Assembly: GCF_007970665.1 (NCBI RefSeq)
Contig: NZ_CP042430.1
Location: 1,860,001-1,924,000, forward strand
Source of the DNA: Baekduia soli
GTDB lineage: Bacteria > Actinomycetota > Thermoleophilia > Solirubrobacterales > Solirubrobacteraceae
DNA length: 64,000 nt
Reading direction: 5' to 3'
Positions 48,256 through 51,467 of this stretch are shown here, piece after piece. The notes beneath the pieces are model-generated. The model was not told where the DNA came from and made no database searches. It saw only the letters and a list, made by a program, of their open reading frames with translations. A program made the position numbers and the translations under genes. Numbering within the stretch: the first letter of the stretch is position 1; every line of letters starts with the position of its first letter.

Positions 48256-48356
48256 GGACGCATTCTCGCGTGTCCGGCGACGACCCTCGCCGACCGACCA
48301 GGATGTGGTCCGGGCCGGGCCAACCCGTCGGGTACGGCTGCCAAGATGCGCGCTCC

Positions 48357-49520
48357 ATGGATGGAGCTGGACACCACGGTCGCCGGCCGCGCCCCGTCGC
48401 CGACGCGCCGACCGCCGACCCTGTCGCGATCGCCAAGGCATGGCTGCTGGCGCTGGTCGCCGAGGCGCCGTTGGCGCAGGCCGGCGCGGTGCCCGCCGCC
48501 GAGTTGGCGCGCGGCGGTCCCGAGCTGTGCGCCGCGGTCCTCGCGGCGCTGTCCTCCGATCGCGAGCTGGAGCGCCTGGTCGGCGGGGACGGCCGCCCGG
48601 CCCCGGGGGCCGCGGCGGCCCGGCTGACCGGCGCGCGCACGCCGGCCGCGCTGGCCGCGGGCGTCGAGGCGCTGCGCGCGGTGACCTGGCGGGCGCTGCG
48701 CGCTGCGCTCGGCGACGCGCCGCCCGAGCTCATGGCCGACCTCGGCGACCGCCTGGCCCACGTGTGTGCCCGCGTCACCGCCGCGTCCCTGGCCGCGCCC
48801 GCGGTCCCCGGTCGCGCCGGCCCGCTGGCCACCGCCCTCGCGGGCGCGCCGACCGAGCCCGGCCCCGCGCCGGCCGCCGACCCCGAGGCCCCGCCGCCGC
48901 CGCGCGGCGTCCACGTCGTCGACCCGCCGCCCGGCGGGGGCGTCGACCCGCTGACGACGCTCGCCGAGGAGCTGGCCGCGAGCCCGCCCGCAGGCGCCGA
49001 CTGGCCCGCCGGTGGCGCGGCCGGCGGCCCGACCGTCACGCGCGGCGGCTCGGTGGACACGAGCTGGGAGGACGCGGGGCGCCCCGCGCCGCCGTGGCTG
49101 TCGGCGATCGACCGCCGCCTGCGGCGCCGCCGGTCCGACGGCCGGCCGTTCGCGGTGCTCGTGGTCGAGATCGACGACCTGGATCGCCTGCTGGCGGCGC
49201 AGAGCGGCCGTGAGGTCGCCGTCGCGCTCGAGGCGGCCGAGCGCGGGCTGACCGCGGAGCTGGCGCCCGCCGACCTCGTCGTGCGCGAGCGCCTCGGGCG
49301 CTGGTGGCTGACCAGCCCCGACCGCGACGGCGCCTCGGCGCGTGAGCTCGGCGCGCGCATCGCCGCGGCGATCGGGCGCGCGGTGCTGGCCGGCGCGCCG
49401 CTGGCGGCGTCGGTCGGCGTGGCCGCCTGCCCGGAGCACGGTGCGAGCGTCGCCGACCTGGCCGGCCGCGCGGACCAGGGCATGTTCGCCGCCCGCGCCG
49501 CGGGCGTGCCGCTGACCTAG
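48357..49520 (+). CDS. Degenerate GGDEF-domain protein
   Basis: 387 residues. The first 240 are Ala/Pro/Gly-rich with a helical core (PVAIAKAWLLALVAEAPLAQ). The last 140 have the shape of a GGDEF domain: FAVLVVEIDDLDRLLAAQSG, then, where RYGGDEF should be, RERLGRWWLTSPD, and ASVGVAACPEHGASVADLAG with ADQGMFAARAAG at the end. The catalytic Gly-Gly-Asp/Glu loop is gone, so no c-di-GMP synthesis is expected; it may bind a nucleotide or be structural. Its stop shares CTAG with the convergent RlpA-like gene. Confidence 0.75.
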   Translation: MDGAGHHGRRPRPVADAPTADPVAIAKAWLLALVAEAPLAQAGAVPAAELARGGPELCAAVLAALSSDRELERLVGGDGRPAPGAAAARLTGARTPAALAAGVEALRAVTWRALRAALGDAPPELMADLGDRLAHVCARVTAASLAAPAVPGRAGPLATALAGAPTEPGPAPAADPEAPPPPRGVHVVDPPPGGGVDPLTTLAEELAASPPAGADWPAGGAAGGPTVTRGGSVDTSWEDAGRPAPPWLSAIDRRLRRRRSDGRPFAVLVVEIDDLDRLLAAQSGREVAVALEAAERGLTAELAPADLVVRERLGRWWLTSPDRDGASARELGARIAAAIGRAVLAGAPLAASVGVAACPEHGASVADLAGRADQGMFAARAAGVPLT

Positions 49521-50320
49521 GAGGGCGCAGGGACCACGGCGGGTGCCGGGTCCGTGGCGCGGACGGCGCCGAGGACGGTCGTCGTCGTGACGCCGAGCGC
49601 CTGCGCCGTCGCCGCGGTGAGGTCGTAGCTCGTCCCGGCGCGGAACGGGCCGCGGTCGATGACGGGCACCGTGACGGTGCGGCCGTCCTTGTAGAGCTCG
49701 ACGAGCGTGCCGCAGGGCAGGGTCTTGTGGGCCACGCCGAGGGTCGCCTTGGTCAGCCGCCGCCCGCAGGCCGTGCGGCGGCCGTAGAAGCCGGGGCCGT
49801 ACCAGGTGGCGCGCGCGCGATGGAACACGGTGAGCTCGCGGCCGCCGGCGGCGTCCGACGCGGCGGTGGCGGCGGGCGCCGGCTGCCCGGCGGCGACCAC
49901 GCGCAGGCGCGGATGGCCGCTGTGGCCGGGCTTGAACCCGGCGCTGTAGGTCCCGTCGGCCGCGACGGTCGCGGTGGCGACCTGCACCCAGCCCGTGCTC
50001 GCGTCGAGCTGCTGGACGACCACGGAGTCGCCGGGGTGCGAGCCGGCGAGCGTGCCCGTGACCGGGACGATGTCGCCCAACAGGCCGGCGAGCGGGGCGA
50101 CGAGGGTCGAGCCGTCGGCGAAGACGCTGGGCTCCGAGGGATCGGAGAAGCCGAGGCCGCCGGGCGAGGGCGCCGTGCCGGCGGCGGGCGCCGGGGCGGC
50201 GGCGGGTGCGGCCGGGGTGGCGTCAGCGGCCGCGACCGCGGTCGGGAGGGCGATGGCGAGAGCGCCAAGGGCGGCGCCCAGCTTGACGGTGGTCGTCTGC
50301 AACTCGTGCTCGGTCCTCAT
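49517..50320 (-). CDS. RlpA-like double-psi beta-barrel cell wall protein
   Basis: 267 residues. A signal peptide (VKLGAALGALAIALPTAVAAADA) is followed by an Ala/Pro linker, then a carbohydrate-binding-like beta-sandwich (about 60-150), and a C-terminal RlpA/DPBB domain: ATWYGPGFYGRRTACG, LGVAHKTLPCGTLVEL, VIDRGPF. RlpA proteins are lytic transglycosylases or peptidoglycan-binding proteins; the Asp of VIDRGPF and the His of GVAHKTLP are the usual active-site pair and are present. The gene follows a c-di-AMP riboswitch almost without spacer, so its expression should depend on c-di-AMP. Confidence 0.88.
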   Translation of the reverse strand: MRTEHELQTTTVKLGAALGALAIALPTAVAAADATPAAPAAAPAPAAGTAPSPGGLGFSDPSEPSVFADGSTLVAPLAGLLGDIVPVTGTLAGSHPGDSVVVQQLDASTGWVQVATATVAADGTYSAGFKPGHSGHPRLRVVAAGQPAPAATAASDAAGGRELTVFHRARATWYGPGFYGRRTACGRRLTKATLGVAHKTLPCGTLVELYKDGRTVTVPVIDRGPFRAGTSYDLTAATAQALGVTTTTVLGAVRATDPAPAVVPAPS

Positions 50321-50324
50321 CCAA

Positions 50325-50475
50325 CGGCCTACGGGGTGAGCTGACGGGCTCGCGCCGGACGACGGCGCTACGGACGCTGCTGGACCGATTCGCCCCGGTG
50401 GGCCGCTCGGTGCGACCCACAGGTGGTTCCCCCGCTTCCGGCACTCGAGGTGGTGCCGGAACTCGGCTGACGGCG
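50325..50475 (-). ncRNA. Cyclic di-AMP riboswitch (ydaO/yuaA type)
   Basis: The minus-strand leader of the RlpA-like gene carries the ydaO-type conserved blocks in order: a GC stem (TTCCGGCACC and its partner), GCGGGGGAACCAC (50435-50423), GGGGCGAATCGG (50396-50385) and the 3' block CCCGTCAGCTCACCCCGTAG (from 50348). In actinobacteria these riboswitches stand before resuscitation factors and cell wall hydrolases; high c-di-AMP turns expression off. Here the 3' block ends about 5 bases before the ATG at 50320, leaving no free Shine-Dalgarno sequence, so control may be at translation. Confidence 0.88.
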
Positions 50476-50537
50476 CGGGAGCATAACACCCCGCCGACGG
50501 CGGGGGGGCATGCGCCGGGATCCGGCGCGTCCGCGAT

Positions 50538-51128
50538 CTAGGGGCGCGGCAGGCGCGAGAGCGCGCGGCGCAGCGCCTGGCCGCCGTAGGTGAGGCCGAT
50601 CTGCGCGAGTTCGCCGACGGCCTGGACCGTCGTGCCCAGCAGCTCGCCCGTGCCGCCGCGGGGCTCCTCGCCGTGCGGGGCGGCCCAGCCCGCCGGCGGG
50701 GGCGGCGTGCTCGCGGCCCGCGGGGGCGGGACGGTCGCCTTCGGCGCCGCCGGCCGGGGTGCGGTGGCCCGGCGCGGCTTCGGCTCGGCCGACGCGGCCT
50801 TCGGCTTGGCGGCCGCGGGCCTGGCCTTGGCGGCCGCGGGCCTGGCCTTGGCGGCCGCGGGCTTCGGCCTGGCGGGCGCCGGCTTGGGCGCGGCGGGCGC
50901 GGCGGCCTTCGGCTTGCCGGCCGCGGGCTCGGCCTTCGGCTTGGCGGCCGCGGGCTTGGCCTTCGGCTTCGGCTTCGGCTTGGCCTTGGGCCTGGCGGCT
51001 GTCGGTGCCGCGGGGGCCGGCGACGCCGCGACGTCGCCCGCGACCGCCCGGCCGCCGCGCTTGGCGCTGCGGCGGGTCGGGCGCGTGCGGGGGAGGCTCG
51101 TGAGGACGTCGCGGTCGGCGGGGCTCAT
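50538..51128 (-). CDS. Histone-H1-like Lys/Ala/Pro-rich protein
   Basis: 196 residues. The centre (about 40-135) is a low-complexity Lys/Ala/Pro domain built on the pattern AAAKARP/AAKPK, like eukaryotic histone H1 tails and the C-terminal tails of actinobacterial HupB/HU. The last 35 residues (GELLGTTVQAVGELAQIGLTYG) could form an amphipathic helix. It probably binds DNA or polyanions through its tail, but has no HU domain. The ATG at 51128 has GGAAGG 3 bases upstream. Low-complexity sequence limits any firmer assignment. Confidence 0.7.
   Translation of the reverse strand: MSPADRDVLTSLPRTRPTRRSAKRGGRAVAGDVAASPAPAAPTAARPKAKPKPKPKAKPAAAKPKAEPAAGKPKAAAPAAPKPAPARPKPAAAKARPAAAKARPAAAKPKAASAEPKPRRATAPRPAAPKATVPPPRAASTPPPPAGWAAPHGEEPRGGTGELLGTTVQAVGELAQIGLTYGGQALRRALSRLPRP
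50815..50865. repeat. Tandem repeat in the histone-like gene
   Basis: A unit of about 24 bases (core GGGCCTGGCCTTGGCGGCC) is repeated two to three times and encodes AAAKARP copies. Such repeats can change length by slippage. Confidence 0.6.
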
Positions 51129-51467
51129 GCCTTCCATCCTCGCACGGGTGCCGCGCGGGCCCGTCGACAGCAGGGCGCCCAGCACTCAGGGACGGCGCGG
51201 GACCTGCCGATGCCCTGATCGAGCAAGAACGCGAAACCAACCAGCCGGACGGGGTAGACCTGATAGAGGTCTGCGTCACGAGGGCAGCGCTGCCGGGGTG
51301 TGACGGCGGTCACACGACGTTGCTGTGGTCCCGGCCAGCGACTACCCTTGGGACCTACGCTCGGGACCGTTGCGTCGCCAGTGCCGACGTCATCGAGTCA
51401 CGAACGTCCTCTTGAACCCCCGATAACCCTGCCGGCGACGCCACGCCGGCGAACTGAACGGACGTCG
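51129..51467 (+). other. 339-base upstream region of sigA
   Basis: The stretch separates the divergent histone-like gene and sigA. It is less GC-rich than its surroundings. The only recognisable part is a candidate sigA promoter at 51320-51348. About 120 bases of untranslated leader would follow, with no clear riboswitch motif. Confidence 0.5.
51320..51348 (+). promoter_or_regulatory. Candidate sigA promoter
   Basis: TTGCTG (51320-51325), 17 bases, then TACCCT (51343-51348). The -10 box with its flank GACTACCCTTGGGAC recurs as GACTACCCTGGACC before the PGRP gene at 55.5 kb. Confidence 0.5.

What the first reader, a model, noticed from the sequence alone, without database searches (positions are those of the whole stretch)
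50325..50475. c-di-AMP riboswitch directly before an RlpA-like gene
The blocks GCGGGGGAACCAC, GGGGCGAATCGG and CCCGTCAGCTCACCCCGTAG lie in the right order on the minus strand. Actinobacterial ydaO riboswitches often stand before Rpf and wall hydrolases. Here the conserved 3' block ends about 5 bases before the start codon, so the aptamer itself seems to take the place of the ribosome binding site. That suggests translational control rather than a terminator switch.
Basis: partly seen in the sequence, partly recalled or inferred. Interest (0 to 1): 0.6.

Follow-up and report, generated by a model that had tools for sequence, protein, structure and literature searches.

The report
c-di-AMP riboswitch masking an RlpA ribosome site
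A real c-di-AMP-sensing RNA switch sits directly in front of a cell-wall enzyme gene, and comparison with 136 related switches indicates that its own folded tail is the gene's ribosome landing site, so binding the signal should hide that site and turn the protein off.

Summary
The finding is real. Rfam RF00379 scores 49.1 bits (gathering score 38) at 50478-50311, minus strand, and the genome holds nine such sites, mostly before wall-enzyme genes. It was wrong on the start codon. ATG 50320 lies inside the aptamer's pseudoknot strand. In one close ortholog a one-base deletion puts that ATG out of frame with the protein, while the downstream TTG keeps its frame. The likely start is TTG 50302.

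The RBS is not replaced. It overlaps the aptamer's 3' pseudoknot strand: loop UCGUCC (50362-50357) pairs with GGAUGA (50322-50317), which runs into the SD GAGGA (50318-50314). Over 136 relatives this loop-tail pairing covaries far beyond chance (71 loop types: 5.01 of 7 versus 4.09±0.09 permuted, 0 of 10,000). Most likely c-di-AMP stabilises the fold, the pseudoknot masks the SD, and RlpA synthesis falls.

The pseudoknot itself is known, and translational OFF control is published for C. glutamicum nlpC. New here are the order-wide covariation, the SD as pseudoknot strand, the RlpA-like target and the corrected start. Ligand binding and regulation are untested.

The parts
50480..50485 (-). putative -10 promoter box TATGCT; transcript probably starts around 50476-50471
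   Evidence: TTATGCTCCCGCGCCGTCAGCCGAG is identical in the orthologs of G001 and G006 while the sequence upstream differs. TANNNT lies 8-30 nt before P1 in 86 of 118 leaders versus 3 of 118 in a control zone further up. The TSS is inferred.
50311..50478 (-). c-di-AMP (ydaO/yuaA) riboswitch aptamer with its 3' tail
   Evidence: RF00379, 49.1 bits, gathering score 38, model positions 1-134
50465..50468 (-). P1 5' strand (AGCC)
   Evidence: cmscan alignment
50326..50329 (-). P1 3' strand (GGCC)
   Evidence: cmscan alignment; no extension of P1 beyond this in relatives
50357..50362 (-). pseudoknot 5' strand UCGUCC, in the loop of the last hairpin (stem 50368-50363 / 50357-50352)
   Evidence: complementary to GGAUGA in the tail; orthologs read UCAUCC; covariation over 136 leaders
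50314..50318 (-). Shine-Dalgarno core GAGGA, overlapping the pseudoknot strand by two bases
   Evidence: same place as the purine block GAAAGAGG of relatives; anti-SD CCUCC confirmed at the 16S 3' end of this genome
49517..50302 (-). RlpA-like DPBB wall protein, 261 aa, TTG start, signal peptide MQTTTVKLGAALGALAIALPTAVAAA
   Evidence: PF03330; PDB 4avr E 8.8e-11; start inferred from ortholog frames
49574..49810 (-). DPBB / lytic transglycosylase domain
   Evidence: residues 165-243 of the TTG-start protein; PF03330

Best explanation
This is a bona fide c-di-AMP riboswitch of the actinobacterial wall-hydrolase type with a minimal translational expression platform. The RNA probably starts a few bases before P1. 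The aptamer folds, and the loop of its last hairpin (UCGUCC) pairs with the 3' tail (GGAUGA) just past P1. That tail overlaps the Shine-Dalgarno sequence (GAGGA) of the RlpA-like gene, whose start codon is TTG 50302. When c-di-AMP binds and stabilises the fold, the pseudoknot should hold the SD region and keep ribosomes off (OFF switch). When c-di-AMP is low the tail is free and RlpA is made. Shown by sequence comparison: aptamer identity, covarying pseudoknot, SD in or next to the pseudoknot strand, no terminator found, frame evidence for the start. Inferred: c-di-AMP binding, direction of the switch, translational level.
For: RF00379 over threshold; nine copies in the genome and copies in 31 of 31 genomes of the group; diadenylate cyclase gene present (PF02457, E 1e-25). 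In 136 leaders the loop 7-mer pairs with its own tail far better than with swapped tails: 5.72 vs 4.82±0.06 of 7; with one leader per loop type (71), 5.01 vs 4.09±0.09, 0 of 10,000; z peaks at 19 in the exact register and falls on sliding. Many double changes occur (CUCUUUC/GAAAGAG, CUCUCUU/AAGAGAG, CUCGUUC/GAACGAG, CUCUCAUG/CAUGAGAG). The P2 loop, tested in a similar way, gives no signal. Of 82 leaders with both an SD and a paired tail, the SD overlaps the pseudoknot strand in 68 and is adjacent in 12. Starts usually lie 10-30 nt after P1, leaving little room for a terminator; the scan found none here. Start: TTG is in frame in window, G001 and G006, ATG is out of frame in G001. A related actinobacterial riboswitch (C. 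glutamicum nlpC) is reported as a translational OFF switch (PMC9960051).
Against: In the window itself the pseudoknot has six pairs with one G-U, and its strand covers only two bases of the SD core. The aptamer scores lower than most relatives (49 bits). The minimum-energy fold without pseudoknots prefers another pairing, UCGGUCC/GGACCGA, though it is shortened in G006 and absent in G001. In Streptomyces rpfA, transcription termination has been reported (reviewed in PMC10117811). The permutation test does not remove all relatedness. Gene starts were called automatically. Several RlpA leaders of the class lack an SD, or show only weak pairing with this loop.
Confidence: 0.72

Rival explanations
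1. One reading: the start codon is ATG 50320, there is no SD, and the folded aptamer ending 5-6 nt upstream blocks or replaces ribosome binding by proximity.
For: ATG is in frame in the window and in G006. Some RlpA leaders of the same class start 9-15 nt after P1 without an SD.
Against: In G001 (63% identical ortholog) the same ATG is out of frame with the protein while TTG keeps its frame. The letters around ATG are explained by the pseudoknot/SD (GGAUGAGGA), and the codons between ATG and TTG are otherwise not conserved. +6 would be among the shortest aptamer-to-start distances in the survey, the others that short having a better in-frame start downstream.
Confidence: 0.12
2. Transcriptional control: ligand-bound aptamer causes early termination (intrinsic or Rho-type) as in B. 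subtilis ydaO or as reported for Streptomyces rpfA.
For: Known mode for the class (PMC6488665, PMC10117811). Some other members of the phylum do show a hairpin plus U-run after the pseudoknot (L174, L176).
Against: No terminator-like site in 49400-51400. Only 24 nt lie between P1 and the start, and the same short spacing is typical of relatives.
Confidence: 0.1
3. Degenerate, non-functional aptamer: a relic that no longer responds to c-di-AMP.
For: Lower score than most relatives (49.1 bits) and a weak P4 stem with an A-C mismatch in P1.
Against: Core blocks, loop-tail pseudoknot and -10 box are preserved against 37-40% protein divergence in two orthologs, which score 59.8 and 61 bits.
Confidence: 0.06

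Closest known systems
Rfam RF00379 c-di-AMP (ydaO/yuaA) riboswitch aptamer; T. tengcongensis ydaO crystal structure 4QLM
   Same: Same conserved core. The 4QLM RNA has loop CUCCUUCG and 3' tail CGAAGGAG in the same places (sequence in PMC5393176), i.e. the same pseudoknot.
   Different: Here the tail strand overlaps the SD of the gene that starts about 14 nt further on, with no separate expression platform.
Corynebacterium glutamicum nlpC c-di-AMP riboswitch (PMC9960051)
   Same: Actinobacterial, wall-enzyme gene, no terminator, translational OFF; CTCC pairing with the RBS GGAG as a pseudoknot was proposed there.
   Different: Different class and target gene; there the pairing was a hypothesis without comparative test, here it is supported by covariation in 136 leaders.
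Streptomyces rpfA c-di-AMP riboswitch
   Same: Wall lytic enzyme target, several copies per genome (seven in S. coelicolor; PMC10117811).
   Different: Reported to act by premature transcription termination; no such structure here.
RlpA septal lytic transglycosylase (TIGR00413 / PRK10672)
   Same: DPBB domain at the C-terminus.
   Different: Scores below the NCBIfam cut-offs (57.4 vs 82.15; 39.2 vs 201); no SPOR domain was found, and no lipobox cysteine follows the signal peptide.

Membership tests
RF00379 c-di-AMP riboswitch | covariance-model score above Rfam gathering score | tested here: met
   49.1 vs 38 bits, full length
RF00379 c-di-AMP riboswitch | pseudoknot between last hairpin loop and tail after P1 | tested here: met
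   UCGUCC/GGAUGA in window; covariation across 136 leaders
RF00379 c-di-AMP riboswitch | binds c-di-AMP | not testable with these tools
   only the presence of a diadenylate cyclase gene in the genome was shown
translational (SD-sequestering) riboswitch | SD lies in the ligand-stabilised pairing | tested here: met
   SD GAGGA overlaps the pseudoknot strand by 2 nt in the window; overlap in 68 of 82 assessable relatives, adjacent in 12
translational (SD-sequestering) riboswitch | ligand changes protein per mRNA | not testable with these tools
   needs reporter assay
transcriptional ydaO-type riboswitch | intrinsic terminator between aptamer and start codon | tested here: not met
   none found by scan; 24 nt spacing
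RlpA (TIGR00413) | score above NCBIfam cut-off | tested here: not met
   57.4 vs 82.15 bits; it is a DPBB/RlpA-like protein (PF03330 above cut-off)

The most novel reading that the evidence does not exclude
In the order of this genome, and in several other actinobacterial groups sampled, the c-di-AMP aptamer carries no separate expression platform: its own pseudoknot strand overlaps or abuts the Shine-Dalgarno sequence, so ligand binding and ribosome access are mutually exclusive by design, in the manner of preQ1 or SAM-II riboswitches. c-di-AMP thereby controls a set of about nine mostly wall-enzyme genes translationally.
Probability: 0.55. Interest if true: 0.5.

Novelty: new member of a known kind. 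Interest (0 to 1): 0.38.

Why it matters
It gives a concrete, testable mechanism for how actinobacterial c-di-AMP riboswitches without terminators could work, an open point in the C. glutamicum nlpC study. It adds RlpA-like lytic proteins of Thermoleophilia to the c-di-AMP wall regulon and corrects a start codon that automatic annotation may place wrongly.

Tried and rejected
Extended P1 reaching the start codon: pairing beyond the fourth pair equals the permuted level. P2 loop CCACCUCG as anti-SD: conserved in three orthologs, but no signal over all leaders (8.65 vs 8.39±0.18). Alternative fold UCGGUCC/GGACCGA from energy folding: shortened in G006 and absent in G001. Intrinsic terminator: none. 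A MAFFT alignment for column-wise pair counts was of limited use because it left the tail register ungapped, so a permutation test that allows several registers was used instead. A first version of that test had the loop window off by one base and was corrected.

Full report
Observation. Rfam scanning of the whole window gave one hit: RF00379 at 50478-50311 minus, full model length, 49.1 bits against a gathering score of 38, E 2.3e-8. The gene after it encodes a DPBB/RlpA-like protein (PF03330) that falls below NCBIfam's RlpA cut-offs; its nearest solved relative is PA4485 (4avr).

Genome and relatives. The genome (5.21 Mb, one contig) has nine RF00379 sites, eight over threshold. Pfam on the genes behind the other eight shows peptidoglycan-binding domains in three, an Rpf-type transglycosylase in one of these, weak NlpC/P60 matches in two, an alginate-lyase match and a second DPBB/RlpA-like protein; two had no match. 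That second RlpA-like gene has a sub-threshold site of its own (27.4 bits). All 31 genomes searched, own and relatives, carry sites. Among RlpA-like homologs, 21 of 29 relative loci and 16 of 20 loci from named or binned records, mostly Thermoleophilia (Patulibacter, Solirubrobacter and MAGs), have the riboswitch upstream; 0 of 11 homologs from other groups do (loci). The two sets partly overlap. A diadenylate cyclase gene is present.

Start codon. In most of 138 leaders (hits; further sequence fetched) a purine block close to GAAAGAGG follows P1, and the start codon usually lies 10-30 nt after P1. In the window the same place reads GGAUGAGGA. The orthologs in G001 and G006 keep CGTTGGATGAGGACC exactly, but G001 has one base fewer between this ATG and the TTG that opens the signal peptide. 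The ATG is then out of frame in G001, and TTG is the only start in frame at the same place in all three. TTG 50302 is therefore the likely start.

Pseudoknot. The loop of the last aptamer hairpin is complementary to that purine block. In the window UCGUCC pairs GGAUGA with one G-U; in both orthologs UCAUCC pairs GGAUGA perfectly. Over 136 leaders, the loop 7-mer against its own tail scores 5.72 of 7, against swapped tails 4.82±0.06. With one leader per loop type (71) it is 5.01 against 4.09±0.09, and none of 10,000 permutations reached the native value. Sliding the loop window lowers the z-score from 19 on both sides. The P2 loop, tested in a similar way, gives nothing. Double changes are visible throughout. 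The same pairing can be read from the T. tengcongensis ydaO RNA whose crystal structure is known (sequence in PMC5393176), so the pseudoknot is a known part of the aptamer.

Mechanism. In 68 of 82 assessable leaders the SD overlaps the pseudoknot strand, and in 12 more it lies next to it. The genome's 16S end carries the usual CCUCC. There is little room for a terminator and none was found, whereas some other members of the phylum do show terminators after the pseudoknot. The best explanation is SD masking by the ligand-stabilised pseudoknot, an OFF switch at translation. The direction and level of control follow by analogy from C. glutamicum nlpC, where c-di-AMP lowered reporter protein but not mRNA and a CTCC/GGAG pseudoknot was proposed (PMC9960051). 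Streptomyces rpfA is reported to act by termination (PMC10117811), so the mode may differ between lineages.

Promoter. TATGCT at 50485-50480 is identical in both orthologs, and a TANNNT box 8-30 nt before P1 occurs in 86 of 118 leaders against 3 of 118 in a control zone. The transcript probably begins only a few bases before the aptamer.

Limits. Nothing here shows ligand binding or regulation. Gene starts were called automatically. The permutation test does not fully remove shared ancestry. Key structural papers could not be read, so novelty of the SD-pseudoknot link is uncertain.

Verdict. [quoted passage not shown]

Noticed in passing
G000:C1:1857446-1857608 (+), about 2.4 kb before the window start (L003): Another RF00379 site (70 bits) lies just outside the window, before a TTG-start gene for a peptidoglycan-binding protein; SD AAGAGAG pairs loop CUCUCUU.
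   Followed up: partly
window 50453-50446 (-): P2 hairpin loop CCACCUCG is nearly identical in three orthologs although its stem differs; CCUCG could pair UGAGG of the SD, but there is no signal over all leaders.
   Followed up: partly
L198, L208, L212, L045, L044: Some RlpA leaders of the class start 9-15 nt after P1 without a visible SD; in L198 and L044 a 5-bp loop-tail match ends right at the start codon.
   Followed up: partly
window 48270-49520 (+): Convergent gene overlapping the RlpA stop codon by a few bases carries a weak, sub-cut-off GGDEF match (20.4 vs 23.8 bits).
   Followed up: partly
window 50538-51128 (-): Upstream same-strand ORF codes a low-complexity Lys/Pro/Ala-rich protein without Pfam match.
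   Followed up: no
L106, L108, L116, L119, L141, L144: A second layout: the pseudoknot strand (e.g. GGUCU/AGACC) lies just 5' of the SD instead of overlapping it, often before a recurring membrane-protein type (RDLAS...LW..SLERSRRRR).
   Followed up: partly
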